DNA from: Micractinium sp. NFX-FRZ
Lineage: Eukaryota > Chlorophyta > Trebouxiophyceae > Chlorellales > Chlorellaceae
Direction: 5' to 3'
Assembly: GCA_029339195.1 (NCBI GenBank)
Contig: JAPTJF010000079.1
Location: forward strand, 1-64,000
Length of the DNA stretch: 64,000 bases
Under the pieces are notes generated by a model that saw nothing but the letters and a program-made list of their open reading frames with translations, did not search any database and was not told where the DNA came from. Below are positions 8,001-57,114 of this stretch, one piece after another. The position numbers and the translations under genes were made by a program. Positions within the stretch are counted from its first letter, which is position 1; each line of letters starts with the position of its first letter.

Positions 8001-11000
8001 GGCGACTGATGCACATCCATTTGAGCCATCAGCCAGGCCCGTCCCGAGGGTAACGAGCTTGCTTGCGCAGCTGAGGCAGCCCTCCATATCTCCGCACCTC
8101 GAAGCGGCGGGTCTTCAGTGAGCGGCGGAAGAGGAGCGACACCTGCGTGCCAAACGAGGCGCCCCACCGACGCTCCGGGTGAGGCGCCCCCTCGCTGCCA
8201 TTGGACTGACCCTTGCCTCCGCGCGCATCCAGCACTGCGACACGGAAGAGGGGAAAACAGGAGGCAAATGTTAACATGGAGCGGGGACCACCTTGCCACC
8301 TGCCTGCCTGCACAGACAAGAGCAGGTGACAACGCCAATGCACCACCTCTTCCCATGCTGCACCTGCATCCCAACCAGTGGCCCCACCTGTGACGCCGTC
8401 CAGGCCCGCCCCCGCCGGGCTGTGGTGCTTGGGGCTCCCCTCCTCGCTGCCGCTGCCGCTGCCGCTGCTGCCCAGGGTGGCAGCTGAGTCAGCGACAGGT
8501 GTCAGTGCCGCTGACTTGGCGCCGAAGGGCGCGTCTTTCAGGATGCCGCCGTGGCTGGGGTCGGCTGATGGAGACGGCGGCTGCAGAAGCAGGGGAGCGA
8601 CAGGCCACGGTCATTACATGCGACGCACCACAGCGTGGGCAGCAGGCACCGCACATTACCTCAGCGTGGGCAGCAGGCACCGCACACCTCGGCGTGGCTG
8701 CACATGCAGGCACCCCTCTTCCTTTGCCCTCCTTCCTCCAGTCCTTCCCCTTCTCCCGCATGCACCACTCACCCTTCCCACCTGTCCGGGGGCAAAGCCA
8801 TCCAGCGGGCGCAGCTTCAGGAAGGCCTCCGACTGCCCCACCAGGTAAGCCCGCGTCTCCTCGCCGTCCCTGCAAGTTTCTCGGTGGAGGGGGGAAGCGC
8901 TTGCTTCTGGTGAGCGTCAATGGATAACATCTATGGGCAGGGGCTCAAGGCACGCCCCACCAAGTATGCCGCATCTCCTGCCCGTCCTGCAAACGCCATA
9001 GGGCCAAGTGCACACACGTGCAGAGGCGGCAAAACACTGGCGCTGTCAAGCACTGAATATGGGTGTCAGGCCTAGCAACATGTCCGAAGCTCGCATGCTG
9101 GCACAACAGCACTCGTCAGCCAGTGTACAAACACGCCCCGTGGATGCCAGGGACACCCGGCCTGCTGACCTGGCATCCGTGGCCACGTCACCATTGGCCA
9201 GGTCCAGCGCAAAATCGGCCAGGCTCTGGCCGTAGGGCAGCGGGTAGCCCATGCCGGCAAACCACTGGTCGGCGGCAGCTGCTTCGCCGTAGTACATGAC
9301 GTGGCCCTGCAAAGCAGGTGGGCAGAGTGACGAATGGGGGCTGAGCAAGAAAGGGCCGGCTCAGAGGAGAGAGCGGCAGACGTGAGTAGATGGGTGGGGC
9401 AGGCGAGAGGCACGCTTGCACCACCGTGTCGAGAGAGGGATGTGCAAAATACCCCCTTACATGAGAAGGAGCAGCTCGTCGAGCTGCTGGGGGGCTCTTG
9501 TACTGCCAGGTTGACCCTGGCATCACTCGCAACCAAAATGAAACCCCTACCTGGCTGGGCAGCAGCCGCAGCGTGCCAACCTGTTGATAGAGCCAAAACT
9601 GCTCCTGCCCCGCCTTGCCCACCACTTGGAAAGTAATAGACCCTTGCCCACCTGGCTGAGCAGCAGGAGCTTGTCCAGCTGCTGGTAGAGGCGAGAGGAG
9701 GGCTGGTGGATGGTGGCCACCACAGCGCGCCCGCCCCCCGCCAGGTGGCGCAGCGTGCGCAGCACGTGCATGCTGGTGCTGGCGTCCAGCCCAGAGGTGG
9801 GCTCGTCCTGGGCGCCGGGGAAGGATAAGGAATATGGAGGGATGAGGGGGGCGACGAGGGTTGGAAGGATGAAGGGGTGACGCGTGTTGAGAGAGGGTCA
9901 GGAAGGGTACGCAAAGCGTGACAACGAGGCAGGTCGGGAGCAGGCTGGGGCTCACAGAAGCAGGCGAAATGGCGCTTGCTTGGGGGAGGTGCGCTGCCAA
10001 GGTGTGCTGACAACACACGGGCGCCCTGCTTTCCTACCCCTAACACCCCTCATGCCTCCCTTTCCTCCCCCTCTCCCCATGCCGCCCCCAGGTCTCCCCC
10101 TTTGCCTCCCGCTCTCACCACCCCTCTCCTCGCCCCATGCGGCTCTCACCAGCATGAGCACTGACGGATCGATGAGCAGCTCCACGCCGATGGAGCAGCG
10201 CTTGCGCTCCCCGCCTGAGATGCCCTTGCGCATGAAGCCGCCTGCACCCAGGGAGGGGAGGGCGGGGAGGGAGGGGGGGGAGGAGCGGCAAACAGGTTGA
10301 ATCAAGGTGGCTGGATGGCGCCCAGCTACGCCCCATCCCCAGCGCTGCCACCGCTCCAGGCCGTTTGACTTCTCATTTTGGGTTGGTGCTAACTCCAACC
10401 ACCCAACTTCTACGGAAGCCGCTCACACAGCCTGCCAGGCTGGCAACGGCAGGCCAGCTGCTCCGTCATCAAGCAAGGGGCACTCACCGATGATTGTGTC
10501 CCTGCAGTGCCCCAGGCCCAGCGCCGCCACCACGGTGTCTATGCGCCCCAGCTTCTCCCCCCGGCTCATCTCGCGGGGCAGGCGCAGGAAGGCGGCGTAG
10601 TGCTGCAGGGGAGGGATGCGGGGGAAGAAGGCACAGGTCGGCGACAGGTGAAAGGGAGCAGCGATGCAGGCACCTGTTGCACGAGCGATGCCTGCAGGAA
10701 GGCAGCGTGTGGCGGCAGGTGGTCGGGTGGGTGGGTGGAGCTGAGGGAAGGGAGGGGTCAACCTGCAACAGGGCGGGCGTCAGTAGGAGAAGGAGAAGGA
10801 GGACGAAGACGACTAGGGGTGCCGTGGCCAATGGCGGGTGAAGGCAGGGGTAGCGGGGAGCGGCAGGCAAGCGGCACGGGTGTGCGAGCTGGCAGCGGTG
10901 CCGGCAGGCAGTGCAGGACAGCTGTCGCCAAGGCCATTCCCTCACCCACCCGTGTGCCCGCCCGCCCCCCAACCCCCCAACCCACCAGAGTCTCCTGAAC

Positions 11001-13569: not shown

Positions 13570-16500
13570 TCACCGCGCCTCGGCCACCTGGCAGGCGCGC
13601 AGGCCCGCTGCCAGCGCATCCCGCCGCAGCTTCCTGCCAATGAACACCACCTTGCTGCCACGTGGCTCATCCGATTTCCACTCCGGGCCTTCCACAATGT
13701 CGTACAGCTCATGCACGCCTTGCAGGATGTGCTTGCGGCTGCTGCCTGCCACGTGGAGCAGGCCTTTGATGCGAAAGAGGTCGGCTTTGTCTGCCGTCTC
13801 CTCCCACAACAGCGTGTCCAGCCAGTGCCGCAGGCGGGGCAGGTCCAGCGGCGCGCCCGGCAGCGCATTGGTGACCGTGCCAACTCTCGAGTCGTGCTGG
13901 CTGCTGCTGCTGCCCTGGTGGTGGTGGTGGTGGTGGTGGTGGTGGTGGTCGGCGTCGCCGCACTCTGGGTCGCTGCACTGCCCCTGCTGCCCCTCTGCGT
14001 CTGTTGCTGCCGCCGCCTGCTGCGGCTGCCCGCTGCCCGTCCCGCCGCCGCCGTCTGCCGCCGCTGTTGGCGCCGCTGCTCCCTGCCGACTGTCAGTGTC
14101 CGCGCTGCCAGCTGGCGGCTGCATGCCAGCCGAGTAGAGGCCTGTGTTGAGGATCAGGGCGAGGTTGATCTCGCAGCGCTGGCAGCGGGTGATGGCAGCC
14201 TCCGAGTTGATCCCCCGCACCTCCCCCTCTATTGCTGCCAGTTCAGCCTCGCTGGCCAGGTCAGTCTGCAAGGACCATTGGAGCGGGGAGGGGACAGCGC
14301 GAGGATGAGTGGGCGACGGTGGACTGAGGATGTGTGGAGGATGTGTGGGGCGGCGGTGCTCCGAGGCTGCCTCAGGTCTTTAGACTGCCATCTCAGCCTC
14401 ACTGGCAAGGCTCGTCTGCAGGCAGGCAGGAGTGCAGCCGTGAGGTGGGTGGCGGTAGGTTGAGTTAAGATTCAGGTTGGTAACACGGGGCGCGCCTGCC
14501 TCCATCTCTGCCAGCTCAGCCTCGCTAGGGCAGGTGCCCTGCACTTGTGAGCGCAGGCGGCCAGGTGAGAGGTGAGGTGGGGCAGATGTGGTGGAGCGAA
14601 CTGTGGTTTGGTGTGGGGTGAACTGTGCGAGGAAAGTTGAGAAGAGGGGCACGCGTGGGTCCTGTGGCAGAGCAGGCGGTGCGAGTACCGCAACGGCCAC
14701 CCGCTGCTGCGCCTTGTCACCCTCCCTGCTTGTCACCCATCCACCATCCATTGCGCACATGCACCTTGCTGAGGTGGCAAGTAACCCCCCATTACCAATT
14801 GCTTGGTGTCTGCCCCCTTCCAAACCTCAGCATTTGGCCTCTCTCTCAATTCCAACTTGCTAAACTTCTACCTCGATCTATTCCTACCTTGTTGAGAAGC
14901 ACAACGTCAGCGAACGCCACCTGCTGCTGCGCCTCATTCACGCCGCCCTCGGGGCGGTCGTCCGCCAGCTGGCGCCTGATGTGGCGGGCGTCCACCACGG
15001 TCACGATGCAGTCCAGGCACACGCTGCGGCGGACAAGCAGGTGAGACCAATCACATGCACGGAGGCCATGGAAAGACAGAGGCCACAGGCACAGTAGCAC
15101 ACCGCCACAGCGATGGTGCAGGCCAAGCTCATGCTGTGCTCATTCAGGGCGAGAAGGGCACCCACCCCGTCCCCTCCCCACCCCACCCCACCTCACCCTC
15201 CATGCACCCCTCCACCCACCTCGACTCCAGCTGCTCGTCCGTCCACAGCGCCGCGGCCACGGGCCCCGGGTTGGCCAGCCCCGTGGTCTCAATCAGGACG
15301 TAGTCGAAGCGGGAGCGCTGCTGCATCAGGCTCTCCAGCGCTTTGACCATGTCGTTCTTGGCTGCAGGGGCACACATGGCACACCGACAGAGTGTGTGTC
15401 AGTAAACCCCCCTGCGGTCTTCATTAACAATTTAGGTAATGGACGTGGGACCATTGCTGCGTCAGGCTCCCCAGCGCCTTCGCTTCTGCCGTTCTTGGCC
15501 GCTCACGACGGGTGCAGTCATGGGGCAAGGCTGCTGCTGTGGTCCCCACATGGCCAATGCGCATGCTATTGAAGCGGGAGCGCTGTGATGCATTCGGCTC
15601 CCAAGCGCCTTCACATTGTCGTTCTAAGATGGAGACAGAACGGCACTTCATTCCTGCCAGCCACAGAGCCGTGGCAGCAGCGTCCTGGCTACCACTGGCA
15701 CCCTCACACACGGCAAAGGTGCAAGTACCGGGCGCGCCACGGCTCAGCTGGCTGTGGCATGCAGGCATCTGTGGACCGCAAGCAGGTGCGCCGCTGCATG
15801 CCGTGCTGGCATCCATGCATGCAGCGCCCACCCAAGAGCGGCGGCAGCCCCACGAGTCCCACCTGAGCAGCAGATGCACCCATTCTCCAGCTCTGTCCAT
15901 TCCGCCAGCGGCGATGCTTCCCGCCCCTGCATGGGTCAACAGCAAGGGATACTTGACGAGAGGCAGGGCGGGCAGATTGGGGGGAGGGGAAGGGCAGTCA
16001 ACTCACGACAATGGAACGGCCAAGTTGATAGTAGCTGATGACGACAGAGGGAAGCAGGTGCCGGTCTCTGGGCATACAGAAAGGAGACGGTTCCAGGTTT
16101 CCACCCGCCCAGCAACCACGCATGGGCAGAGGCCAGGTCGGTGGGGACAAGGCGCATGCAGGAAGTAAAGGCAGAGCAGGAGCAGCCGGATGGCAGAGGA
16201 CAGGCAGCAGGGGCAGCGGGCAGCAGGGGGCAGGGTCTGCAACACACCTCTGGCTCCTTGACCAGCGCACGCTCAATGTCGGCTGAGTCAGCAATCTCAT
16301 TCAGCAGCACAGCACAGCGGTAGCCGTGCTTGGCAGTCAGCACCCAGTTGACCAGCGTAGTCTTGCCAGCACCCAAGTACCCGGTGATGAGGGTCACGGG
16401 CACCGGGGTGGGCGGCGGGGCAGCTGCGGCGGGTACGGCAAAGGCACCTGCGGGCGGCGCCTCCTGTGGCTGCAGGTGAGGCGGGGAGCGGGCAGCGGCC

Positions 16501-19783: not shown

Positions 19784-22378
19784 ATGGTCCCCGCTCTGCG
19801 ACTATGCCTGGCCCTCGAGTGCACTGCCCGAGCGGCCGTCAGCTGGCGCCACACCCTGCATCTTGTTTTGGAGCCACTTTTGGGTATGCTGGAAGCGGCG
19901 CCGGACGGCGCAGAGCTCGCGCTGGTGCTGTTTGGCGCCCGCCCGCCACACAGCGCGGCGGCGGTCGAGTCGAGCCTGGCCTGGTGCTGCAGCGTAGCAG
20001 ACTTCCGCCAGCAGCTGCCCGACGTCTCAGAGTTTGTGGGCGGCGGCAACCAGCCGGTGGCGCTGGCAGAGGCGCTGCTGGAGGCGGCGGCGCTGTTTGC
20101 CACCGCTGGCGGCAACGCCGCCGGTGGCGCCTGCCAGCAGCACTGCCTGGTGTGCCTCGCCTCCGACCCAGACACTCACCCGGTGCCCTGGCCCTTTGCT
20201 GAAGACTGCAGCGTGGTGAGTCAGCTGTGTGCTCAAGGTTACTGTTGCGTGTGGCAGCAGGCCGGAGCCTGGCCAGCGCCTGCTCCGGACACCCCAGCAG
20301 CCGCCGCGCCCCCCACCACCTCCCCCTCGCCAGCACCGCTCGCCCAACATTGCTCGGCCAGCAGCAGGCTTGCCTGCCTGTGCCTGCCTCCTCTCCCTGA
20401 CGCAAACCCCTGCCCACCCACCACGCCATGTTGCCTGTGCGCAGGCCAAGCTGCCGGGCCTTGCCACGTCAGCAGAGCTGTCGTTCGCCTTCCGCCGGCG
20501 AGGCATCCTTCTGTCCCTGGCGGGCCCCAATCTGCTCAGCAGCGCGCACCAGTTCTGGCATGTGGCCAGCCTACTGTCAGACGTGCCCCTCAGGTGCGCC
20601 CCTCCGCGCTGCCGCCGCAGCAGGCGCAGTGCACCCAGCTTCGGCGGTGGAGGCGGCGTGGCTTGTGGGTGCAGGCCGGGGGGACGGGGGCGGCGGGCGA
20701 CCCGATGCATGCCTCGTGCCGCCCTCTGCCATGGACCCCTGGGCCCCTCTGCAACCTTCTGTCTGCCTGCCTCCCATGCCTCCATCTGCACCAACCTCTG
20801 CCCAGCCCTGCACTGCACTGCTTCCGTGACTGGCCTCGGACACACTACACTCGCGATTGCTGACTGGAGCCTGTTGTGCACCGCCTGCCCCGCCCCGCCC
20901 CGCCCCGCCCTGCAGCGTGTCGGACGCCCGATGGGAGCGGCTCAAGCGGCAGGGCGGCGAGGCGCTGCAGCAGCAGCTGATGCGGACGGTGGTGACGCTG
21001 CCAGGCGGCGCTGGCCAGGTGCGAACACTTGGGCAGCACGAGGCGCAGGGGCAGTGTGGGGCACAGCGGTATCGTCGGTGGCGCACGGCAGCGGAGGCTG
21101 GTGCACAGCATGCAAAGGGAGTGTGTGAAGGGGGGGGTGCGCGGGAGGCAGGGCATTGTTGGACACAGCAGCCGGATGCGGACGGCAGTCACGCTGCCCG
21201 GCGGCGCTGGCCAGGTGCACAAAACAGGGGCGGTGTGGGGCCAGGCAGGATGCAGGGGTGTTGTGCGTGACAAGGGGTGATGCTCTTGTGGGACACAGGG
21301 GCACAGCACACAGCCACGCCATGGGGCACGGCAGCTGGCACGGTCAGTGCCGATCCCGCTTGCTGTCTCACCCTTGGCGCTGGTTTCACCGCCCCGGTGT
21401 GTGCAGGTCGCGCTGCCCTGCTGGCCACAGGGTGTGGAGGCGCTGCAGCGGCAGGCGGGAGCCAAGCTGCTGGGCGCTGGCAAGAGCTCCGGTGGGTCCG
21501 GGCAGCATTCATGCATGCATTCATTCATTCATTCATTCATTTCACAGCGCTGCAGCAACACAACACTGTGCCACAGATGCGTTGTCCCAGCATTGCCGGG
21601 CAGCACTGCACGCTTGCCTGACCTCCGACCTGAACTCTTGCCTCAGGCTCTGTGCTGTAGTGCAATTTCTTACTTTTGGTTGTTTGTTGTTCGGACCTCT
21701 GGTGGGTGCCGGCAGGGCCGCTGGGTGTGCCATAGCTGGCATGCATGTGGCCGCAAACTTTGAGGGGCGTGAGGCTGAGGAGGTGAAACGTTGTTTCATG
21801 GGTATGTGCCTGGCGGGCCGCCGTGCAATGCGGCCCTGCCACTCACGCCGCACCCTCGCGCCGTGCTCTCTCTCTGCTGCAGCGCTGAACGCAGAGTCCA
21901 GCCTGGAGCCGCCTGGCAAGGACGACCCAGCTGCCAAGCGGGCCCGGCTGGAGGCACCTGCAGCCGCACCCACGGTGGCATCCGGCGCGGCCGGCGCCGG
22001 CACAGCACCAGGCGCAGCAGCAGCAGCGGGCAAGCCGGCGCCGGCGCCCCCGCCCTCCACCGCGCCCATGGCGCCGCCGGTGCTTGTGGCGCCGAGCCCA
22101 GAGGCGCCACCGGTGGTGCAGTGGACGCCGCCTACCACGGCCAACGTGTTGGGGCAGCAGGCCACACCATCCACGGTGCCTGCCCCCTCTCCCGGCAGTT
22201 TCTGGGAGGTGCTGAATGCCGAGATTCTGAGCCCCGCGGAGGAGGGCGGGGCGCTGTCCCTGATGCCGCCCCCGCCCGCAGCGCAGCCGCAGGCGCAGCA
22301 GGCGCAGCAGGGCTACCCGCGAGAGCCAGCGGTGCCGGGGCTGCCGCTGCCGCCCGTGCAGCAGCACGCGCCGGTGCT

Positions 22379-22422
<44 letters not shown>

Positions 22423-24086: not shown

Positions 24087-25602
24087 CTACAGCTCTGCCT
24101 CTTGCCGCCGCCGCCGCGTGATTTCCACCCCTAGCGAGTGCAGCACGCCGCTGACCGCGACATGCGGCTTGGCCACTCCCACCGTAACAGATGCCACGCT
24201 GGGGTGTGCCCGCAGCACCTGCCCAGCAATGCGCTCTGCCACAGCCTCAATCAGCTGCGCCGGCGGCCCCTCCACTATGGCACGGATGTCTCTGCAGGGG
24301 GGAAGATGGGCGGGCACAGGAGTCAGCCGTGGCCCTGGCCGTGCCTGCCTGAGAGAGGAGAGCGACGGCAGGGCAGAGGGCCGTGGGAGAAGAGCAGTCG
24401 GCGTGGGCGTGGGGTGGGGAGGTGGGCAGCCAGGTGCGGCATTGGGCCCTCCACTGGTGTTGCAGCTGACCGGATGCCCCGAACAGCGAGGCAAAGGGTT
24501 GAGGGCAGGAGGCAGGTGGAGAGGAGCAGGCGGCGGGTGGGTGGGCAGGCAGACATGAAACTCATAGCTGTGTGGGCAGACCGCACACACATGTACATCT
24601 CAGAAAGGAGGCAGCTGGGGAGAGGGAGCCCAGGAGAGAGAGATGGAGGCGGGAGGGTGGGTGGGTGGGAGGGGCAGCAGGTGGCATGCAGGAACCATGG
24701 GGTGGCGGGTGTTGTGCCCCCGGTTGTGCTTCCGCTCTGCCCACACACTCCTACACCTGGGAGATGGGCAGTTTGTCCTCTTTGAACCCATTTTAGCAGC
24801 TCCGCCACACTCAGGTCCCCTCATTCACTCACTCATACACCTGGGCATAGTTTATTGTGTTGTGGAAGTCGTCGGTGCGCCCCGCGTGCGACAGGTCGGT
24901 CACCAGCGTGGCATCCACCACAAACTTCTGGCCCAGCTTGTTCTCCTGCCGGGGGGAGGGCAGGGGGAACCAAAAGGCAGAACACACAGATGCAAAATAT
25001 TGGGGGACAGCCTGTTGTATCGGCATGTTTTATAAAGGGAGATGGGGACCAGGTTTTGTCGCAAGCGTTGCATCCAGCACCGCAAAGGTCTGGCCCAACA
25101 CCCTTCTGCTGTGTGGGGGAGACAAGCAGCCGCGGCACGCTTGCAAGCAGAGGTAGCAGCAGTGTGGGGAGAAGCCAAGGGGCACTCATGGCAGCTTACA
25201 CCCAACTGCTTGATAGTCAACCACGCAGGCGGCTTGCTAAGTGCAGGGAGAGCACAAGGGGTGCCACAGCGCTGCTGAAGCCTTGGGGCAGGGCAGTCAA
25301 CCGGCGGCCAGGTTGGAGCGCCAGAGCCGCACCTCTGGGTAGACTCCGTGGTAGCCATGGAACACTAGCCCACGCAGCAGGATCTTATCTTGTGGCTGGC
25401 CGGACGCCAGCTCACTCAGCAGCCGACAGCCCGGCCGAGAGGCCCCCCCTGCCGCCACCGCCGCTGCCGCTGGCCAGGCCGTCTGCATGCAGGGCAGCGC
25501 ATCTGGAAGGTGTCGGCGCTGTCTTGTACGCTTTGATAATGCACTCGAAGCTACCGTGCACGCCCTCACCTGTGCAAGCGACGCGAGGCGGCCGGCAAGC
25601 AT
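24087..25602 (-). CDS. Dihydroneopterin aldolase (folate synthesis)
   Basis: Four exons (25602-25570, 25482-25333, 24945-24833, 24291-24087) give about 166 residues. The enzyme cleaves dihydroneopterin to hydroxymethyl-dihydropterin and glycolaldehyde. Family blocks are all present: DKILLRGLVFHGYHGVYPE at the start, LGQKFVVDATLVTDL, then DDFHNTINYAQVYEDIRAIV and LIEAVAERIAGQVL, and VTVGVAKPHVAVSG near the end. The catalytic Tyr and Glu of the first block (GYHGVYPE) and the Lys of VAKPH are in place. About 40 residues precede the catalytic domain; they are rich in Ala, Arg and Ser and lack acidic residues at first, so an organelle transit peptide is likely (plant folate synthesis is mitochondrial). 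The ATG at 25602 is the first in frame; the upstream frame continues only with TTG. Confidence 0.9.
24745..25110 (-). repeat. Exon echoes of the aldolase exon at 24945-24833
   Basis: Segment 25040-25110 (upstream intron) copies the exon start: ttgggccagacctttgcggt against ctgggccagaagtttgtggt, followed by gatgca/gatgcc and acgct. Segment 24745-24790 (downstream intron) copies the exon end and its donor, with cccaggtgta and gagtg preserved but a TAG within. Both are on the same strand as the exon. Confidence 0.7.
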
Positions 25603-25779: not shown

Positions 25780-25784
25780 TTACA
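25780..25784 (-). terminator. TGTAA polyadenylation signal of the gene at 25833-27934
   Basis: TTACA on plus, 49 bases beyond the stop at 25833. Confidence 0.55.
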
Positions 25785-42700: not shown

Positions 42701-45700
42701 GGCGTGTGAGACAAATGGGGCCGACGGAGCAACGTGGCGGATGAGTCAGTTGACCCCTAAGGGGTGTCCTTGGTTGCCAGATGGGGTGCCTGTAATGTCC
42801 ATAGGGGTATGACAGGTTGGTCAGCACCCGCCTGCAGCACGCCCACACGGCTATGGCCCTCTCTGCTCCATGCCGCCCGCTCTGCCGCACCGGCACCTGT
42901 GTGCCCTGCAGGCCTGAACTTCAGCGGCCCAGCGTACAAGTACACCAGCGCAGCAGCCTTTTCTTACGATGGCGGCTATGTCGATGAGACGGGTGCGTGG
43001 TCAGTGCTGCCTGGTGGCAAGGGGCTACCAGCTCTGCGCTTGGGCCTCTCATCTGCTGCCTCTGCCCCCCGCCTCCCTCTGCCTTGCACCCTCGCCCCAC
43101 CACCCTCCTTCCCACGCCGCCGCTCCCACCCTCGTCCTGCCCTCCTGCGTGCCTCTGCACCCCCTGCAGATCCGGTCACCTTCAACGCCACCACGCAGGG
43201 CGGAGTGAAGGTCACGATGGGTCGTGTGGAGGCCTCGCAGCGCATGCTGGAGATTCTTGCTGAGGAAAAGGTGCTGAAGGAGGAGATCGACGTGAGTGCG
43301 GCCCTGCTTGCTGCTGTTCTCTGCTGGTCCCCGCGGCTTGGATGGGTGCAAGCGGCAGGCGCAGCCTGTGCAGAGGAGGGTGGCGGAGCGGGGCAAACGG
43401 CCTGGGAGGCAGGAGCCTGGGGTGCGCTTGTGGTCTTGACCCACCTGCTTTGCGGCCAGCTAAGCCCTGCCTGCTTTGCGAGAGTGCTGCCAGGGGTTAG
43501 CAAGCGTTACAGGAAGGCGCCATCTCACTGACCTGCGCCCCGCTGGTCCCTGCGCCTCCGCGCCTCCCGTGTCTGGCGGTATGTGCAGCTGATGCTGCCC
43601 CGCCTGACCCAACTTGTGGAGAAGGAGGAGGCTTGGCTGGATGAGCAGGACGCGTTGAGGGCAGCTGACGAGGAGGGGGAGCAGCAGGAGGAGCAGCAGG
43701 AGGGCACGGACGAAACGGAGGGGCAGCAGGAGGAGCAGGGCGCTGATGGCGCACCAGAGCAGCCGGGGGACGAGGGAGATGAGGAGGCAGGGGGCGGCGA
43801 GCCAGGCGGCTTGGCAATTGCGGGCGGCGGGGAGGGTGCGGTTGAGGGTGTGGGAGAGGCGGCAGGCAGCGAGGATGTGCCGCCAGGAGGGGTCAGCGAC
43901 GGGGCCCCCGCTGAGGCTGATGTGGCAGCAGGGAGCCGCACAGCTGAGGCAGACGTGGGCAGTGCTGCGGCGGCCGCTGAGGGCAGCCAGGACGGGCAGG
44001 TGGTCGGCGGTGGCGGCAGCAATGCCTCCGGGGCCGTGGCGCCCAAGGAGGAGTGGGAGCTGGGGGAGGCCCGCCAGCAGCAGCAGCTGGAGGTGGAGGA
44101 GGAGGTGGAAGAAGTGGAGCACATTGACAGCCCCTGGGCCAAGGTATGGCAGCAACACATGCTGGTGGCACATGGGGCGCATTCCTGACCTTGCAGTTGC
44201 GGTCGCGCGAGAGGTTGCACGCATGCATAAAACAAATCCCAGGTTCCACAGCTGCTCGCCTCCCCGCTTTGCAGGACAGGAGCGCAGCAGCTGGGCGAGG
44301 CTGTGGCCGCCACACGAATGCCTCATGTGTGAATCCTGGTTGTGTGTGCCTTGCGCCTGCAGGGCATCCAGCAGCTGGAGTAGGTGTGTCGTGCCAAGCA
44401 GGAACAATTCATACTGCGCAAATTGACCCTCGTGACGAATGAGTCAGCCCTTGCCCCTGCAGGACATTGAGCAGCTGGACGGGGTGGTGGCCGCCAAGCA
44501 GGAACACCTGCGCCAGCTGGAGGCTGAGCTGGCGTCGCTGCAGCGCTCAGACCTGGTGGTCCCCGCAGGTGAGCGCCTGCTGCGCTGCTTGGTGGATGCT
44601 TTGAATACTTGTCGTGTTGACATGGATGCTTTGGATACTTGGCAGTTGAGCTCTGGCGTCGCCGCGTGATCCATTGAGTGGGTACTCCGCCCCGCCGTGA
44701 GGGCAATGGGCACAGGCATGGAGCCCTGGGGCATTATGGGGCCAGGCGACTGTCCGTGGCGTGGCTGCACGGCATCCCCATCCCGTGTGCACAATTGCCT
44801 GCAGACACGGCCACGGGTCACGCGCGCCAGCTCATCCCGGACGAGCACTACCAGCTGCAGGACACGCTAGGGGAGGCGTACCGGCGTTGCGCAGACGTGA
44901 GTGTGTAGTTGGTAGTGTGTACGAGCTTAGCTGGTTTGAATAATGGTCAGCCGCATTGGAACTGAGACACGGCCCAGACGCATTTGAGCGGCAGCAGCGA
45001 GGGCCTTCTGCATGGTACAGCATGGTGCTGCACATGGGCAAGCGAGTGGCTCGTCTGCAGCCCTGCCACAGCATCTTGCCCCCAGGCCCCAGCCCCGCCC
45101 CAGGGCACCCACAGCCCTCTGCCCGCTGTCTGTGGTCATTCAAACCTTCTAGAAATGACGATGAAATCGTGCACATCTACTGTCTGTGTCTGTCGCCTCG
45201 CAGGCGGGCAAGGGGCGCAACGAGAAGCGCAAGCCGTACCGCCACCTGCGCACCCCCTGGGGGCAGACGTTTGCCTTCACGCCGGACTCCCGCTCCCGCG
45301 TACACCCCGACACACTGGCCCGCATGCATGCCCTCAACTCGCTGGACGAGGAACTGTGGAAGGCGGGGCACGAGATTTTGGAGGTGGGTGGCAGAGGAGG
45401 GGCTGGGTGGGGGCGTGGAAGTGTGCTGGGCACACACCGTGGGCGGCGGGGAAGCAAGTGGGCCGGCCCACAGGCCCTGGCCCGCACTCACGCGTCGAGC
45501 TTGCTGGAATGAGGTTTACAAGGTGCTGGAGGTGCATTAGAGAGGCGGGCGGCGGGAGAGGAAGGACAAGGGGTGGGAAGCCAGGACCTCCCCTGCATGT
45601 TGCAACTGACTGGGTTGTCACCATGCTGGCGTGGCCTGCCGCCGCCCACTACCCTTCCCCAGGCCCGTTCCTTGCTTACCTATCCTATTCGTTTGCTGGG

Positions 45701-46570
45701 CACGCAGAGGAGCAGCTTGCTGCCCCGCACAGCCTGCCCCTGCCCCCACCTCCCCACCCATCCTTGCCCCTCCCCACACCACCCCTATCCAAATCGTTTG
45801 CTGGGCACGCAGAGGAGCAGCTTGCTGCCCCGCACAGCCTGCCCCTGCCCCCACCTCCCCACCCATCCTTGCCCCTCCCCACGCCACCCTGTTCAACCCC
45901 GTCCCCCCTGCAGCGCAAGCTAGAGGAGCAGCGGGCGGCGGGTCAGCTGCAGGACTTCCCGCCCAAGCGCCCCCGGGCGGCCGCCCCCACCGGCCCCTCC
46001 TCGCGCCGCCGCCTGCACAGCTCTCACGAGTATCACAACACGAGGGACCACAGCTGGCAGAAAAGCAGCTTCAAGCTGGGGGACAAGCCACACGAGCAGC
46101 TGTACCAGCACCAGCAGCCCGCACCCCCGGAGGCCGCTGGCAGCCAGCCCGCAGCTAGCCCGGATGAGCTGGCGCAGCAGCAGCAGCAGGAGGCGACCAC
46201 AGCAGGCTCAGCAGGTGAGGTGCATTCGAGCGCATATGACCTGGCAGCGGCGGCCCAGCAGGAGCAGGAGGACGCTGCTGCTTCCGAAAGCAGTGGCGGC
46301 AAGCAGCCCATGCTGGCGGCTGGGGACAGCGGCGGAGAGCAGGACAGCGGCGGGGAGTCGCACGCGGCGGTCGCGGTGGAGGAGGAGGCCGGTGGCGAGC
46401 AGCTTGTGGCAGGGGCAGCAGCCGAGGCCAGCGCTGACGAGCAGGAAGCTGCACAGACAGAGTCGGAGGCAGCAGCTGCCGGCAGCACCGAGGAGGAGCC
46501 GCCTGCAGCCTATGAGCACGGGGGTGCCCTTCATGATTCCACCCCAGAGCCGACACGTGAAGAGCTTTGA
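39724..46570 (+). CDS. Sulfotransferase (HS6ST/plant-TPST-like) with WW domain, 14 exons
   Basis: About 947 residues from 39724-39988, 40498-40684, 40921-41101, 41539-41644, 41883-42007, 42200-42235, 42390-42540, 42912-42992, 43170-43291, 43589-44143, 44463-44568, 44805-44896, 45204-45383, 45914-46570. A signal peptide or signal anchor opens the protein (MRRQALGLLLLLCTAAAAAA). The PAPS 5'-phosphosulfate loop is FFLHVPRTAGKTYANCFLR, formed across intron 1; the 3'-phosphate motif is LRKPVDRLISAYEF. A WW-type segment follows (WRDYTSPDNRTYWWNEAK then VWTLPE). HCLRSSWVAREMLLALATKR and MLEILAEEKVLKEEI belong to the catalytic C-terminal part. The tail of some 450 residues is acidic and low in complexity. 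The domain is of the Sulfotransfer_2 type used by heparan-6-O-sulfotransferases and by plant tyrosylprotein sulfotransferase, so the product should act in the Golgi. The acceptor is unknown. Confidence 0.85.
41412..41490 (+). repeat. Exon echo of the sulfotransferase exon at 41539-41644
   Basis: Reads MERLREAAADALTALRTY against MERLREQAEDDPTAWRDY. It follows ctgcgg instead of cacag, about 120 bp upstream of the true acceptor. Confidence 0.85.
44270..44440 (+). repeat. Two exon echoes of the sulfotransferase exon at 44463-44568
   Basis: Segment 44352-44440 repeats ctgcagg and reads GIQQLE, stop, then AKQEQF and LRKL, against DIEQLDGVVAAKQEHLRQLE. Segment 44270-44330 is a more diverged copy (gcagcagctgggcgaggctg). 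With the exon they form three units with a period of about 90-110 bp. Confidence 0.85.
45689..45890 (+). repeat. 105-bp tandem duplication in a sulfotransferase intron
   Basis: Two units of about 97 bases (starting 45689 and 45794, period 105) differ at about one position. Each unit contains cacgcagaggagcagcttgc, itself a degenerate copy of the next exon's start (cagcgcaagctagaggagca). It is the youngest duplication in the window. Confidence 0.9.
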
Positions 46571-47401: not shown

Positions 47402-49916
47402 CTAGGTGCGGCGCACGTTTGGGCGGTACCGCGTCGCCTGCTCCAGCAACGCCCTGCGCTGCTGCAGCGCGGCAATGTCCTCTTTCGCCTTCTTCACGCA
47501 CGTGTTGAGGTAGGCGAGGCTGCAGGGTGGGCAGCCAGACGGGCAGGCATGTGCGGTGAGCAGGGTGGGCGGGTCAACGGTCGAGCGGGTAGGCGGGTGC
47601 AGACGCACTTGCCAGCGGTGAGTTCAGGGTCTCGGTGTTTAAGGGTTGTTGTACAATGCAAGGACAGGGCACCCGGCAAACCCCAACCAAGCCTTCTCAT
47701 GCCACCCATTCCCTGTCCCACAGGCGGTGCAGCAGGAGCCTCTCCTCACCCACAGCTGGACTGCTGGCACCAGAACTGCCTACTCTGCTGCCATCAGCCC
47801 ATCTTGCGACATCACCTTGTTCAATCTACCCCCCTTCTGTCCGCCTGCCCCTCTCTCAATGCCCCCCACCTGTCCCACAGGCGGTGCAGCGAGTCGCGTT
47901 CGTCGGCGATGCTGGAGCGCCAGAACTCCACGTCCCGCTCCATCTCCACCATGGCGGAGCAGATGTCGGGGGTGAGGCGCGGGAAGCGGTGCAGGTCGCC
48001 TCCCTCCCTGGCCACCTCCAGCAACTCCTGAAGTGGGAGGGCACAGGTTCATGAGGTGCTGGTTAGGAAGGCATCAGATAGTAGCTTGCCAGGCTGGCAA
48101 TGGCCAAGCTCTGGCCGACCTCGGCGGGCTCCTGTGAGGCGCAGGCACGTAGGCATTGTCAACAGCACTGTCCACAACCTCGTACACCACGTGTTCAGAA
48201 CTACAACAATCCATTTGGATTGGCAGTACAGTAGCGGAGAGGGATGCCATGGTGACTTGCTGGCTGTGCGCTCAGCCAGCTGTGGCCAGCTGCCGCAGCT
48301 GAGGTGGCCATGGGCGATAACAACACACTCAGGCAGCAGCGTGCAGCCAGGCTGGCACCACCAGCTCCCATCGGCCCGGCTCTCTCTCCTTGCCCACCCC
48401 ACTGCCCAAGGTGGTGCGCCCGTTGGCGATCACCGCTGCCAGCAAGGCACGCGGGTGGCGCACAGAAAGCAGCGGAACGGCACCAATTTTCTGTCTTCTC
48501 GTCCTCCCTACCCACCCTTACCTTGCCCGCCCGGCTGTCCGCGGTGGTGCTGCCCTTGCCGCTGACCGCCGCCAGCTGGGCGTTGAGGTCGTGCCGGCGG
48601 TGGCTCAGCGTGCGGTCCATCTGGTTCAGCCCCGACAGAAGCGTCTGGGCATTCTTCTCCAGCAGGCCTGTGGGTGCGGGGGAGGGAGACGTGCGAGGCA
48701 GCATAGGGCGTGCTGTTCATGAGACAGTGAGGAGGCCAGAGGGATGACAACTGTCCCTCTGCATGCCTTGTGCCGTACGTGCTCACCGCCCAGGCGCACA
48801 CCTTCCAGCCAGCCTCGCATCACGCATCCGCCCCCGCACCCTTGTGCCCCAACTCCTACCTGCGCTGTCCCCGCTCATCCAAGCACCCAGTGACGCAATG
48901 CCCAGCCCCCCCAGCGCACCCACCCGAGGCACTCTGCGCTGTGCTTCCAGAGACAAGTTACAGCGGCAGAAGTGGGTGAAGCCTGTATGCCTACCTCCAG
49001 GCCTCCAGGGGCCTGCCTCCCTCCCAGCACACCATGCCAAAACCCCATGTCAAGCATATGGAACTCAGCCAGCCATGGTGAAGGAAAAGTGAAGACCAGG
49101 AGCCCGCCCACCTGCGCTGTCCTCCAACTCATCCAGGTACCGTGCCTTGCTGCGCAGCTTGTGGCAGGTGGTGTGCAGCAGGCAGGCGCTGCAGGCAAGC
49201 AGGGGGTGTGGCGGGGGCACAACAACGTCAAGGGGGAACAGCGAGACGGCTGAATGGGCGCGGAGGGCGGGGGCGGGTGAACGAAGCCAAGTTGGGCCAG
49301 CAGGCCAAAACGTTGCTTCCTGCGCCAAGTTTTACAGCCCCCAACTGTGTAATGGGCTGGCCCCCTCACATGTACTTGTCCCGCCATGTGCGCAGGTGCG
49401 TAAAGTCCGCTGCCTTGGGCTCCCCTGCGGTCGGCGCGTGGCGGCGAGGGCGGGTGGACACGGGGTAAGGTAGGGAACACACGGCATGCCCAGCTGACCT
49501 ACGTGCAGTCATGGAGTCCTCTTGTGCACTGGAAGAAGGCAGGCAGCCGGACCAGCTCCCCACCCACCGAACTCCTCCACGAAGACGGCCCTCCACGCTC
49601 GGTCGGCGGCACCCGCCGCTGCTCGCCACTCTCTGCTGGTCTGCGAGGCGCGGCAGAGATCCGCCACGTCCTGCGAGGATTGGGTGCCGCACAACGGGTG
49701 AGCGGGGCGCGAGGGCGCGACATGGCGCACCCACCTCATAGCAGAACTGACCAGCTTGTCGAGCACCAGCTCCAACACGTCCAAGTGAAAGAACACTGCC
49801 TCGACGCCTGCAGGCTCCGGAGCTTCCGCCTCTGCTGCTGGCTCCGACCGCGCGCCAAGTCCTGACTTGGTGCTCAACCGCGGGACAAGACCCGCCAGAA
49901 CAATCTTGCCCGACAT
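47402..49916 (-). CDS. F-box protein with coiled-coil C-terminus
   Basis: Seven exons (49916-49752, 49670-49568, 49424-49370, 49188-49112, 48667-48522, 48027-47870, 47519-47402) keep phase and give about 273 residues. The F-box is formed across the first junction: LDVLELVLDKLDVADLCRAS then REWRAAAG and AWRAVFVEEFG, followed by LRTWRDKY, a common F-box-adjacent motif. The rest is helical and probably coiled coil: LLEKNAQTLLSGLNQMDRTL, MVEMERDVEFWRSSIADERD, and KKAKEDIAALQQRRALLEQA. It should join an SCF complex and use the coiled coil for substrate or dimer contacts. The first donor is GTCAGT; an alternative GTGGGT 12 bases on gives the wrong phase. The lower-frame read-through would add 22 residues of arginine/proline-rich sequence and split the F-box. 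Confidence 0.75.
47715..48450 (-). repeat. Exon echoes in the F-box/coiled-coil gene
   Basis: Segment 47715-47750 copies the end of the exon 48027-47870 and its donor (ctgtcccacaggcggtgcag is shared). Segment 48385-48450 copies the end of the exon 48667-48522 with its donor (gcggtgatcgcc, ggcgcaccacc, gggcaagg). Both are in the intron following the copied exon. Confidence 0.75.
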
Positions 49917-52553: not shown

Positions 52554-52747
52554 GGTGCCACCGTGGGTTGCCAGCATGGGGAGCGCAGCACTCGAGACAG
52601 AGGGATGCTCTGTTTGTCGCTCCCTCACAACTCCTGGGCACTGGTGTAACCGCATTGCTGTCCGATACCGCAGCTACAGTGGAGCTTCTCGCTTGCTCGA
52701 TCGCCGTGCAGCTTCCTTCCAAGGCCTCCCCCCGGTCGCTGGACACA
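52554..52747. promoter_or_regulatory. 194-bp bidirectional promoter, phosphatase / MAT1
   Basis: The two start codons (52553 minus, 52748 plus) face away from this short interval, so both promoters must share it unless longer leaders are used. Confidence 0.6.
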
Positions 52748-54042
52748 ATGGACGCCGCCATACGAAAAGAAATACAGATCAGAACACGCGTCGAGTCCAT
52801 GTGCGCTCCCCAGGCACTACTCCCGCCTCTTGCCGCCGCTCCGCCGCTACCTGCCGCTGGCCTGCACGATGCCACTCAGCGCCTCACACCCTGCCCCCAT
52901 CCGGCCTGCAGCTTCAACAAGCGTGAGCAGGACTTCCCCAGCAAGCTCGAGTTTGACGACTACTTGGAGGAGCGGGAGGACATCAGTGAGTGGGCAGGTG
53001 CAGGGCAAGGGCGGGCCGGAGGTCTGGGACGGGTGGGGCGGGGGGACAGCGGTGGTGGGGAGTGTGCAGGTGCTCACCTTGCTCAGCAGGCCTGCTTGCC
53101 ATGCACTCGTGCTGCTCGGTGTTCCTCCATTGGTCCATCCAATTTCCATGTGCCTGAGCCGCCTGCCTTTGCCCCGGTCCCTCTACTCCCTACCCGTGCA
53201 ACCCAATGGCCATGGCCTCTCCCCAACCCAACAAAAGGCCCCAATGTCAACCTTCCTGTCCCCCCTCACACCAAATTCAAAACCCTGGGTGCAGTTTTCA
53301 ACCTGGTGGAGGGCAGCGAAGCCGAGAAGAAGGCAGCGGAGGACAGGGTGGCAGAGTACCGGCGGCAGAACGCCGACAACATCATCCAAAACGAGGCTCT
53401 GCGGGCAGAGGAGCTGCGGCGGCGCGTGGCGGCAGCGGAGGAGGGCGCCGGGCAGGCAGGCACAAGCGGCACGGCGGCGGCGTTCCACGAGGGGCGGGAT
53501 GCAGAGCCTCACCAAGGGATGGAGTACACAGCGGCGCTGCCAGAGGCGGCAGCCGCAGCGCTGGGCACGTGCGTGGGCGGGGTGGGGCTGCTGCGTGGCT
53601 TGCTGAGCGGGGCAAAGCTGCATGCGTGTTTGGGGGAGTTGAGTTGAGGGTGCTACGGCTGCAGGGCATGCAGCAGCTGGCTGGTGGTTGCCTGATGGTG
53701 CCACAGCTGCTGCCCCTCCTACTGCCAGGCGTAGCCAGCCGCCCCCAGGCCCCCGCTGCGTGGTCCAATGCAGAGCGACCCACGAGCCGGCATACCAGCC
53801 CCACGTGCATGCCGCGTCACTCACTGCTCGCTCCCGCCTCCCCCATCTGAACATGCTGCAGGGCCCCGGCACCCATGCCAATGGGTGCGGCAGGCGCCGA
53901 CGGCAACCTGGCCACGGCGGCAGCTGGGCAACAGCTGTCGAGCGATGCGTGGCTGGCCATGGCGCTCGCCAGTGGCTGGCAGCAGTCCATGCCCAAACGC
54001 AAGGCGCTGGAGCAGGCGTTTGGCTCCGTCGTCGTCTTCTAA
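52748..54042 (+). CDS. MAT1: CDK-activating kinase assembly factor MAT1 (TFIIH)
   Basis: Four exons (52748-52800, 52912-52985, 53295-53568, 53862-54042) give about 193 residues. The MAT1 core reads RKEIQIRTRV, IFNKREQDFPSKLEFDDYLE, EREDIIFNLVEG, VAEYRRQNADNIIQNEALRA. It ends with SGWQQSMPKRKALEQAFGSV, the conserved C-terminal tail. MAT1 links CDK7 and cyclin H and anchors them to TFIIH. The animal and yeast proteins carry an N-terminal RING finger of about 60 residues; it is absent here, and no Cys-rich exon fits in the 194 bases upstream. From memory, land-plant MAT1 also starts just before this block, so this looks like the green-lineage form and not a truncation. The middle (residues ~95-130) is variable. 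Intron 1 donor GTGCGC is the best phase-consistent choice; reading through it would add a Pro/Ala-rich insert. Confidence 0.85.
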
Positions 54043-54990: not shown

Positions 54991-57114
54991 ATGTGGCGCC
55001 GCATGAGCAGCAGAAGGCGAGTGCTTTCCTCCTCGGTCTGCTCAGCCGCTCCATTGCGCCCCTCAGGCCCCTTGCTGTTGCTCAACCAGACGTCCGTCAT
55101 GAGCCGGCGGCAACACAAGCAGCCCCTCCCGGGCGCTGTGTGGGCCTCTCTCCCCCTCGACCTGGCGGCCCTGCTGCTCTCGCACCTGCGGCCGGCTGAC
55201 AAGCGGGCCCTGGCCCTGAGCTGCAGCTTTGCTCATGCGTGGGTGGCATCGCAGCGGCGATCCTTTCGAGTGCTTTTGACCGCCCAGTCAGACAGCCTGC
55301 AGCCAGTTCGGCAGCTCTCCAAGGCTCCTGCGATCCGCTCACTGCACCTGGTGCACGGAATCCAGGACGTGCATGAGGAGCCGCGGCTGCTCACCATCTG
55401 CGCCCGGCGCTTCACGCTGCCGCAGGTCGGGCACGCCGCCTGCCCACCCGCCGCCCGCCGAAGCTGCTGATTGCTCAACCCTCAACCCCACTGCGCTGAC
55501 CCTCTCATCCCTCTCCTGCAGCTGGAGAGCCTGTCGCTGGATGATGTTGCAATCACCAGCCGCATGCTCTCCTGCCTGGCGCGGCAGCTGCCCCGCCTCT
55601 CCACCCTCTCCCTGGCCACCTCCTCCGCCTGCCGCACCCACCGCATAAACGCGGATGGCTGCCTGGCAGAACTGCGCTCATGCGCCGCCCTGCGCTGCCT
55701 GTCAGTAGGTGGGTGCTGGGAATCGCGAGGCGACGAAGCGGGTGCTGCTTGTGAGGGCAGGGCAGGTACTGCCCCCATCCCCGGCCAAATGTGGCTTGCA
55801 CCCGCCTTTCTGCCCACTCTGCCTGTGCCCCACCGCTGTGCCCCACCTCCCCACCAACCCCTGTCCTGTTGCCTTGCGCACCTCCCACCCCACCCAGAGC
55901 CTGCCCTCTGCCGCTCACCTCGCCACCCACCCGCCAACACCCCCTGTGCAGTGAACATCCAGAGCGACCTCGGGCTGGATCAGCTGACACAACTGACCCA
56001 GCTGCGCCTCACGCTGCCAGACCACACACCGGACGTGAACGACCTGCCGCCGGGCGCCTTTGCAGAGTTTGTGTGAGTGCTTTTGCTCTGCTTGCATGGC
56101 GGGTGCTGGAGAATGAGGCTGCATGTGGGTGCTAGGGATAGCGGCTGTCAGCAAATGCGCCTTGCTCCCCTGGCGACAGGTTTTAGTGCACAGCTCCGCT
56201 CCTTTGAACTCTGTTGTTGCCCACCCACCCTGCTACTCTGTACACGCTCCCTGCACTGCGCCCACAATTCGTCTCCCCACCCCTCCTGTCTCCCCCCCGC
56301 AGCTGCGAGAACTGCGGCGACGTGCACGAGGAGGATTGGGGCGCCATGCTGCGGGCCCACACCGACTTTGCAGACCGCTGCACCGTGGGCCCCGCGCTGC
56401 GCGCGCTGGGCGGGCTGCAGAGGCTGGAGGTCAACTTCCAGGGGGAGTGCGAGCGGGTGAGCGGGTGCTGCTGGTTGTGAGTCGGGGTGGGGGTTAGGTG
56501 GGCAGGGGCCTGAGCAGTGCGTGCTTGCCTGGGTGGTCTTAACTGCGCTGCGCAGTTGGCGGAAGGGTTTGCCCTTGCCCCTTCCACTTCACTTCGTGCT
56601 GAACATTTTGGCGCCGACTGCGCCGTGGCCTCCCTGTGCATGCCCGCCCAGCCGCAGCGGCCCCCCGACCCCTCTCCTCTGTTCCTGCCCAGCCCGCTGC
56701 TCCGTGCACACATTTATGCAGTGCTCAAGATTGCGGGGTGGACGGTCCATGAATTCCCCAACACCCCTCCTCATCCCTAGCCCTATGCTCCTGGCCCCAC
56801 CCCTTGGTGCCCTGCAGATCAATGCCGTGCTCAACGTGCTGGACCTGGCCGGCCCCGGAGCGGCGCTGCCGGGCCTCACACACCTGCTGCTGCTCAACGC
56901 CAGCCGGCTGGACTACAATGCCACACTGCTGGCTGCGTTCAACTTGCTGCCTGGCTTGGGACAGCTGGAAATAGAGTTTGAGGGAGGGCACTCGCTGTAC
57001 ATGCACTGGCCCGGGTGGGGCGCCAAGGATGCGGCGGGGCGGGCGGTGGAGCTGCGTATGCGCAGCGGGCGGCGGTGGGTGCTCGAGCGCACGCTGCCCG
57101 CGGCAGAGGAGTAG
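54991..57114 (+). CDS. F-box/leucine-rich-repeat protein
   Basis: Five exons (54991-55425, 55522-55708, 55952-56072, 56303-56456, 56818-57114) keep phase. From 54991 the product has 397 residues; from the internal ATG at 55099 it has 361. The F-box is VWASLPLDLAALLLSHL then LALSCSFAHAWVASQRRSFR. LRR-like strands follow: IRSLHLVHG, LESLSLDDV, LSTLSLATS, LTQLRLTLPD, LQRLEVNFQG, LTHLLLLNAS and LGQLEIEFEG. A small Cys-containing insert (CENCGDVHEED) opens exon 4. It is probably a substrate adaptor of an SCF ubiquitin ligase. The Arg/Ser-rich leader from 54991 (MWRRMSSRRRVLSSS) is not needed for the F-box, so the start at 55099 is also reasonable. Confidence 0.78.
56710..56745 (+). repeat. Possible exon echo of the F-box/LRR exon at 56818
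   Basis: The segment tttatgcagtgctcaagat resembles the exon start atcaatgccgtgctcaacgt. Short and weak. Confidence 0.4.

What the first reader, a model, noticed from the sequence alone, without database searches (positions are those of the whole stretch)
8948..56745. Intron 'exon echoes': degenerate copies of exon edges inside the neighbouring introns, across nine genes
Seen directly: more than twenty intron segments, 35-90 bases long, on the same strand, repeat the start or end of the adjacent exon together with its splice site. They occur in the ABCG, ZNG1-type, MED25, aldolase, PRP6, sulfotransferase and F-box/coiled-coil genes, and more weakly in the phosphatase and second F-box/LRR genes. 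They range from near-identical to barely recognisable, and some have stops. This graded decay suggests introns are lengthened again and again by local tandem duplication across exon-intron boundaries, followed by loss of the surplus exon piece. It would also provide a steady source of candidate alternative exons. I know of no named description of such a genome-wide pattern in green algae.
Basis: partly seen in the sequence, partly recalled or inferred. Interest (0 to 1): 0.9.

Follow-up and report, generated by a model that had tools for sequence, protein, structure and literature searches.

The report
Exon-edge duplications lengthening algal introns
In this green alga, short stretches of DNA of about 100 bases that straddle the start or end of an exon appear to have been copied in tandem again and again, leaving fading copies of exon edges inside a quarter of the introns tested and showing one way in which introns can grow.

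Summary
Exon edges (50 nt exon + 15 nt intron) were aligned to their own intron. In 314 kb of this Chlorellaceae-like genome, 90 of 630 edges match better than introns of other genes allow (3 expected; 5 on the opposite strand), in 79 of 315 introns; in the window, 28 of 146 edges. A 50-kb hold-out repeats it. Local repeats are direct, not inverted, and nearly absent beyond 600 bp. Copies form arrays: where an edge has two copies, 13 of 18 lag pairs are near 1:2. Unit length peaks at 95-115 bp, resembling plant tandem duplications ascribed to repair of adjacent nicks. Echoes show no sign of function: none of 74 measured copies a whole exon, splice dinucleotides are kept no more than their neighbours, most indels shift the frame. 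Best reading: neutral tandem duplications across splice junctions, visible for long because the exon copy stays constrained. Against: no orthologous DNA or RNA was available, and one paralogous segment pair shows no tandem insertion in non-coding DNA. A new variant of a known process.

The parts
8947..8992 (-). ABCG: echo of acceptor edge 8869 (template 8822-8875), lag 119
   Evidence: identity 0.89
9546..9598 (-). ABCG: echo of donor edge 9652 (template 9647-9696), lag 98
   Evidence: identity 0.78
14491..14543 (-). ZNG1-type: far echo of acceptor edge 14265 (template 14216-14270), lag 273
14385..14420 (-). ZNG1-type: near echo of acceptor edge 14265, lag 150
14687..14714 (-). ZNG1-type: echo of the donor side of exon 14888-15023 (template 14909-14934, 21 nt inside the exon), lag 220
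15448..15502 (-). ZNG1-type: near echo of acceptor edge 15361 (template 15312-15365), lag 136
15586..15634 (-). ZNG1-type: far echo of acceptor edge 15361, lag 267 (about twice 136)
21175..21218 (+). MED25: echo of exon tail and donor (template 20979-21022; donor at 21020/21021 inferred from the orthologues), lag 196, identity 0.91; the gene finder called it an exon, three orthologues lack it
25058..25121 (-). FolB gene: echo of acceptor edge 24945 (template 24899-24958), lag 162
32444..32497 (-). PRP6: echo of acceptor edge 32399, lag 85
33347..33403 (-). PRP6: echo of donor edge 33483, lag 121
34769..34803 (-). PRP6: echo of acceptor edge 34535, lag 262 (second echo at lag 140)
34882..34947 (-). 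PRP6: echo of donor edge 35074, lag 176
35272..35332 (-). PRP6: echo of donor edge 35510, lag 223 (second echo at lag 116)
35441..35504 (-). PRP6: echo of acceptor edge 35212, lag 276 in a 297-nt intron
36077..36144 (-). PRP6: echo of donor edge 36188, lag 99
37169..37219 (-). PRP6: echo of acceptor edge 37051, lag 159
37680..37734 (-). PRP6: echo of acceptor edge 37585, lag 144
37850..37897 (-). PRP6: echo of donor edge 37998, lag 143
38181..38235 (-). PRP6: echo of acceptor edge 38114, lag 116
38373..38454 (-). PRP6: echo of donor edge 38543, lag 158
40297..40354 (+). sulfotransferase-like gene model: echo of acceptor edge 40498, lag 193
41405..41467 (+). same gene model: echo of acceptor edge 41539, lag 118
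41769..41835 (+). same gene model: echo of acceptor edge 41883, lag 95
44349..44406 (+). same gene model: near echo of acceptor edge 44463, lag 100
44286..44312 (+). same gene model: far echo of acceptor edge 44463, lag 184-186
45679..45888 (+). two 105-bp tandem intron copies, 97% alike; at the same spacing the similarity runs on into the real acceptor at 45914 (25 exon nt at 80%). The edge test by itself does not reach significance there (p = 0.075), so the third copy is likely, not proven
47696..47760 (-). F-box gene: echo of donor edge 47870, lag 157
48380..48438 (-). F-box gene: echo of donor edge 48522, lag 133
49702..49749 (-). F-box gene: weak echo of acceptor edge 49670, lag 67, in an 81-nt intron; doubtful
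   Evidence: score 73
53032..53070 (+). MAT1 gene: echo of donor edge 52997, lag 66

Best explanation
The genome suffers frequent local tandem duplications, most often of about 85-200 bp with a peak near 100. When the duplicated unit straddles a splice junction, the gene keeps its message if the outer splice site goes on being used, so the surplus copy of exon edge + splice site + intron becomes intron, lengthens it by one unit, and drifts. The same edge can be hit again and arrays build up. The exon half of the echo stays recognisable longest because its template is held by purifying selection, while intron-intron copies decay on both sides. Shown: direct orientation, local range, arrays with even spacing, copies of graded identity, lack of coding or splice-site constraint. 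Inferred: that the outer site is the one spliced; that the duplications come from repair of staggered breaks or adjacent nicks, as proposed for rice.
For: Edge echoes 90 of 630 vs 3.15 expected and 5 antisense; hold-out 16 of 52. Direct local repeats with ungapped score >=20 at lags 25-100/101-200/201-300/301-400/401-600/601-1000: 40.8/49/15/8/2/0 per 100 lags, inverted 0 at each of these distances. Edge cases in which the similarity spans at least one lag and includes the real exon edge: C79 45679, 88950, 149484, 160778; C10 6364; C200 19648. Second echoes at 18 of 90 edges (0.9 expected); 13 of the 18 lag pairs have a ratio of 1.8-2.1 against 18% of random lag pairs, p = 8e-7. That range was set after seeing the ratios; without a range, the median distance from 1:2 is smaller than in every one of 20000 random draws. 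The share of 50-nt windows with an own-intron copy falls from 14% (donor) and 12% (acceptor) at the edge to 2-3% at 40-60 nt into the exon, about 1% nominal. Unit mode 95-115 bp in edge and unassigned DNA and, more weakly, within introns. Near copies are slightly more alike to the exon than far ones (0.828 vs 0.802, p = 0.052). Introns with echoes are 108 nt longer in the median. MED25 of two Micractinium and of Chlorella vulgaris lacks the echo peptide. Rice: tandem duplications are the commonest insertions and enriched at 50-200 bp, their share falling beyond 125 bp (PMC7971508: abstract passage; section 7).
Against: No RNA and no orthologous DNA were available, so splicing of the outer site and the echo-less ancestral state are not shown. 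The one paralogous comparison at hand does not show the process: two segments about 9 kb apart (58181-60605 and C79:67052-69467, 84% identical) differ by five internal indels of 15 bp or more, and only one, 60 bp in a coding minisatellite, is a tandem copy; 19, 25, 33 and 190 bp ones are not (polarity unknown). Many echoes are too decayed to show that copies abut: median span/lag 0.32 for edge copies, and extension beyond the seed is modest (median 52 vs 43 nt in chimeric controls). The rate is uneven: 5 of 112 edges on C10 against 17 of 54 on C30; gene heterogeneity chi2 119 on 71 d.f.. Exon-part identity (0.82) exceeds intron-part identity (0.80) only slightly, a comparison biased because local alignment stops where identity falls. 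The array at 45679 is not significant in the edge test (p = 0.075).
Confidence: 0.85

Rival explanations
1. The echoes are duplicated exons kept as alternative or mutually exclusive exons.
For: They carry exon sequence and often the splice dinucleotide (donor 30 of 42, acceptor 23 of 35 kept); one looked coding enough for the gene finder to accept it (MED25).
Against: 0 of 74 measured copies hold a whole exon (at most 200 nt of exon were looked at, and 82 of 90 exons are no longer than that); splice dinucleotides are kept about as often as other exon dinucleotides (0.71 vs 0.64; 0.66 vs 0.62); mismatches over codon positions 215/267/280 are nearly flat; 157 of 169 gaps in the exon part are not multiples of three (permissive gap costs; 16 of 18 with strict ones); lags modulo 3 = 0/1/2 are 17/21/11 of 49; MED25 orthologues lack it.
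Confidence: 0.04
2. Same tandem duplications, but made by replication slippage or unequal exchange and not by repair of nicks or breaks.
For: A short-lag class (15-70 bp) exists inside introns and in unassigned DNA; arrays can grow by unequal exchange.
Against: Edge copies peak near 100 bp and hardly occur below 70 bp (0 of 49 against 10 of 17 within introns, Fisher 9e-8; hold-out 0 of 14 against 3 of 9), unlike what slippage would favour; the size range agrees with rice events judged not to be slippage. Junction microhomology was not tested.
Confidence: 0.3
3. Duplications are aimed at exon edges by something tied to transcription or splicing, not spread at random.
For: Edge copies outnumber intron-intron copies (49 vs 17) although intron DNA exceeds exon DNA (104671 vs 73675 bases); at lags of 80-125 the intron share of the unit is under 45 nt in 6 of 42 cases where 21.5 are expected under uniform breakpoints.
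Against: The same unit length occurs in unassigned DNA and, more weakly, within introns; intron-intron copies lose recognisability on both sides, which by itself gives an excess of edge copies; selection on splicing can give the 45-nt floor.
Confidence: 0.1
4. Chance similarity or shared base composition and simple repeats.
For: The genome is about 65% G+C and rich in simple repeats.
Against: Introns of other genes and the opposite strand of the same intron give only chance numbers, and other introns of the same gene score about as low as those of other genes; repeats with score >=20 are absent at lags of 601-1000 bp.
Confidence: 0.005

Closest known systems
Tandem duplications of 50-200 bp in rice, ascribed to patch repair of adjacent nicks (PMC7971508: passages and section 7 read; Vaughn and Bennetzen 2014 and Schiml et al. 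2016 seen only as citations)
   Same: Direct, local, size range 50-200 bp with a falling share beyond 125 bp, commonest kind of insertion there
   Different: Found there as insertions between varieties; here as a decayed record in introns, around splice junctions, in a green alga
[quoted passage not shown] potato RdRp, PMC4974935, abstract and introduction read; review PMC3443670, passages read)
   Same: Tandem duplication inside a gene, in potato also across an intron-exon boundary, with splice signals inherited
   Different: There a new intron arises; here an existing intron is lengthened and the copy lies inside it
Tandem exon duplication and internal gene duplication (Gao and Lynch 2009: citation only, text not held; PMC9013439 and PMC9741552: search listing only)
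   Same: Copies of exon sequence in the neighbouring intron (recalled for the family)
   Different: Those are whole exons, often spliced as alternatives; here mostly 20-65 nt of the exon edge is copied and decays
Small tandem duplications by CST/Pol alpha-primase fill-in at breaks (PMC8355091, passages read)
   Same: A worked-out molecular route to short tandem duplications from staggered breaks
   Different: Shown in mouse and human cells; untested in algae

Membership tests
Plant-type short tandem duplication (nick/patch repair) | Copies direct and local | tested here: met
   Direct; 0 inverted up to 1000 bp; none at lags 601-1000, 1.6 per 100 lags at 1001-1500 (score >=20)
Plant-type short tandem duplication (nick/patch repair) | Size 50-200 bp | tested here: met
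   Mode 95-115; 71 of 90 significant edges have lags of 50-200 (counted from the lists)
Plant-type short tandem duplication (nick/patch repair) | Copies abut; similarity spans one unit | tested here: inconclusive
   Met in six edge cases (C79 45679, 88950, 149484, 160778; C10 6364; C200 19648); median span/lag of the 49 edge cases is 0.32
Plant-type short tandem duplication (nick/patch repair) | Absent from the ancestral state; made by break repair | not testable with these tools
   No orthologous DNA held; the single paralogous pair showed one tandem insertion of five indels, in coding DNA
Tandem (alternative) exon duplication | Whole exon with both splice sites copied | tested here: not met
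   0 of 74 measured
Tandem (alternative) exon duplication | Copy keeps frame and splice sites under selection | tested here: not met
   157 of 169 gaps frame-shifting, splice dinucleotides kept about as often as neighbours
Intron gain by tandem duplication (AGGT model) | Unit equals the new intron | tested here: not met
   Lag within 25 nt of the intron length in 5 of 90 edges; those five could be exceptions
Introner elements | Related sequence dispersed in introns of many genes | tested here: not met
   Within 314 kb only 2 of 79 echo-bearing introns (15 of 315 in all) have any similar sequence more than 3 kb away (blastn E <= 1e-5); a whole-genome search with one ZNG1 stretch found only itself

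The most novel reading that the evidence does not exclude
Edge-straddling tandem duplication is a main engine of intron growth in this lineage and is shaped by a rule: the unit must carry at least about 45 nt of intron (exceptions 6 of 42) and seldom more than about 65 nt of exon (10 of the 79 listed exceed 66). Units below about 70 bp are nearly missing at edges though common inside introns. The rule would be the imprint either of selection to keep the old splice site the winner over its fresh twin, or of breaks placed by chromatin or splicing at exon edges. Introns would then act as conveyor belts, newest copy next to the exon.
Probability: 0.35. Interest if true: 0.78.

Novelty: new variant of a known kind. 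Interest (0 to 1): 0.62.

Why it matters
How introns grow is poorly known (my judgement). Here one intron in four of those tested carries a direct trace of its own lengthening, with the template still in place beside it. That makes rate, unit size and splicing cost of intron growth measurable from sequence, and gives natural pairs of old and new splice sites, tens to a few hundred bases apart, to study splice-site choice.

Tried and rejected
Chance, composition and simple repeats: rejected with other-gene, same-gene, antisense and distance controls. Alternative exons: rejected on frame, splice-site and whole-exon tests. Introners: rejected within 314 kb. AGGT intron gain: lag near the intron length in only 5 of 90 edges. 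A first gapped extension with permissive scores gave inflated spans and was replaced by stricter scores with chimeric controls. A paralogous segment pair found late was aligned as a test of tandem insertion and gave no support in non-coding DNA. Cross-species DNA: a PRP6 search of prokaryote genome contigs gave one irrelevant locus, of viral contigs nothing. Literature: searches listed no account, as far as titles and abstract starts show, of partial exon-edge copies as a genome-wide pattern in green algae or of intron lengthening by this route; the library lacks most subscription journals. Junction microhomology was considered but not tested, for too few young complete copies. Rows dropped: 590 predicted introns in 264 kb became 288 after dropping weak or short exons (some introns merged) and lengths outside 80-1200 nt; second echoes were not counted in the edge totals; only 74 and 80 of 90 edges could be measured for exon and intron share.
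Full report
What was tested. The window is the first 64 kb of contig C79 of a 66-Mb, 838-contig genome. The first 390 residues of MED25 are 57% identical to Micractinium tetrahymenae, 51% to another Micractinium and 45% to Chlorella vulgaris, so this is probably a member or close relative of the Chlorellaceae. I fetched 250 kb more, together about 0.5% of the genome, and wrote a gene finder trained on the sequence itself. Its models in the window carry fitting Pfam domains: ABC_tran, cobW with CobW_C, PRP1_N with HAT/TPR repeats, F-box, dual-specificity phosphatase, MAT1, FolB.

The observation. Each exon edge (50 nt of exon, 15 nt of intron) was aligned to its own intron, and to stretches of equal length from introns of other genes. 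In 264 kb, 77 of 576 edges reach p <= 0.01 (5.8 expected; 6 on the opposite strand); 46 score 120 or more against 0.6 in the control and 0 antisense. Pooled over 314 kb, 90 of 630 edges reach p <= 0.005 (3.15 expected, antisense 5), in 79 of 315 introns and 36 of 72 gene models. The 50-kb hold-out, with the gene model frozen, gives 16 of 52 edges in 15 of 27 introns. A stricter test gives 33 of 570 edges at p < 0.001, none antisense. In the window 28 of 146 edges are significant; PRP6 alone has 12 of 34; the phosphatase and the gene at 55-57 kb have none.

Tandem structure. Independently of gene models, local repeats with ungapped score 20 or more are direct: 40.8 per 100 lags at 25-100 bp, 49 at 101-200, 15 at 201-300, 8 at 301-400, 2 at 401-600 and none at 601-1000; inverted repeats at the same distances are absent. 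A few (1.6 per 100 lags) recur at 1001-1500 bp and were not followed up. Of 115 duplications (seed score 18 or more, lag 25-700) 49 pair exon edge with intron, 17 intron with intron, 17 lie in unassigned DNA, 25 inside exons, 7 other. In six edge cases the similarity runs for a full unit or more and includes the real exon edge; over all 49 the median span is only 0.32 of the lag. In the window, 45679-45888 holds two 105-bp copies 97% alike, and at the same spacing the similarity runs on into the real intron end and 25 nt of the exon at 45914 (80%), which suggests an old edge duplication that was duplicated again recently; the edge test at 45914 by itself gives p = 0.075. At 18 of 90 edges there is a second echo (0.9 expected), and 13 of the 18 lag pairs have a ratio of 1.8-2.1 (18% expected, p = 8e-7, range chosen after the fact; a range-free test was not reached by any of 20000 random draws); the nearer copy tends to be the better preserved (p = 0.052).

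Size and position. Lags of non-exonic duplications have a short class (15-70 bp) and a mode at 95-115 bp, clear in edge copies and unassigned DNA and weaker within introns. Edge duplications lack the short class: 0 of 49 below 70 bp against 10 of 17 within introns and 4 of 17 in unassigned DNA (edge against intron Fisher 9e-8; cut-offs of 60 and 80 agree). The hold-out repeats it, 0 of 14 against 3 of 9 and 3 of 13. In the larger, looser set the edge class has 1 of 70 below 75 bp, and the edge test itself lists five lags at 34-69 nt among 90. The exon share of the unit has a median of 43-44 nt, 90th percentile 61-64. The intron share is under 45 nt in 6 of 42 cases at lags of 80-125 where 21.5 are expected under uniform breakpoints; an exon share above 66 nt at lags of 125-210 is seen in 5 of 24 where 11.2 are expected. 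I did not expect this floor, and it has two readings: selection on splice-site choice, or placement of breaks.

No sign of function. Splice dinucleotides in echoes are kept in 30 of 42 donors and 23 of 35 acceptors (0.71, 0.66) against 0.64 and 0.62 for other exon dinucleotides; mismatches fall 215/267/280 over codon positions; 157 of 169 gaps in the exon part are not multiples of three (permissive gap costs; 16 of 18 with strict costs); 9 of 1115 echo codons are stops. No echo of 74 measured holds a whole exon. In MED25 the echo at 21175-21218 looks coding enough to fool the gene finder, but three orthologues have no such peptide.

A direct check that failed to support. Two paralogous segments on C79 (58181-60605 in the window and 67052-69467) are 84% identical. 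They differ by five internal indels of 15 bp or more; one of 60 bp in a coding minisatellite is tandem, those of 19, 25, 33 and 190 bp are not. Which copy changed is unknown and the segment has no significant echo of its own (0 of 4 edges at 57-60 kb), so this is weak evidence, but it is the only comparison of two related copies that I had.

Mechanism. The simplest account is recurrent tandem duplication of about 100 bp that is harmless when it straddles a junction, because the outer splice site still gives the old message. It lengthens the intron by a unit; introns with echoes are 108 nt longer in the median (372 vs 264.5), though longer introns also offer more room. Echoes are conspicuous at exon edges partly because the exon template is conserved; the raw duplication rate need not be higher there. 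In rice, tandem duplications are the commonest insertions, enriched at 50-200 bp and attributed to repair of adjacent nicks, not slippage (PMC7971508); in mouse and human cells such duplications arise by fill-in at staggered breaks (PMC8355091, passages). The match in size and orientation makes the same origin likely here, but it is an inference.

Standing. Tandem duplication across an intron-exon boundary is known as a route to new introns (PMC4974935; review PMC3443670). As a pervasive, serial lengthening of existing introns with decayed edge copies I found no description in nine literature searches (listed under Tried and rejected) of an incomplete library. I rate it a new variant of a known kind.

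Noticed in passing
57256-60605 and C79:66663-69948 (L002): A duplicated segment about 9 kb away, 84% identical over 2.5 kb, with one 310-bp piece (57256-57561) moved to the other end of the copy (69636-69948).
   Followed up: partly
13916-13949: Eleven TGG units, read on the minus strand as a run of about ten histidines in the ZNG1-type (cobW) protein, as would fit a zinc-handling GTPase (recalled).
   Followed up: no
22379-22505: Long CAG-type repeat coding for glutamine runs in the MED25 gene.
   Followed up: no
59489-59597: Nine copies of a 12-bp unit at the end of a predicted gene, coding for a glutamine/glycine repeat; the paralogous copy is 60 bp shorter there.
   Followed up: partly
window and L002-L026 (C79, C10, C200, C30): Echo density differs between contigs: 58 of 364 edges on C79, 5 of 112 on C10, 10 of 100 on C200, 17 of 54 on C30; cause unknown.
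   Followed up: partly
L016, about C10:48700-49900: A long stretch of diverged repeats inside a predicted exon (lags near 120 and 33 bp), unlike the intron echoes.
   Followed up: no
L004, L010, L011: C79 at 88950, 149484 and 160778: Clear multi-copy edge arrays (lags 93, 112, 99) lie outside the window on the same contig.
   Followed up: partly
L027, 7798-8013: A contig filed under Prochlorococcus AG-409-J16 encodes a 72-residue match (36%) to PRP6; a TPR protein or a eukaryotic contaminant.
   Followed up: no
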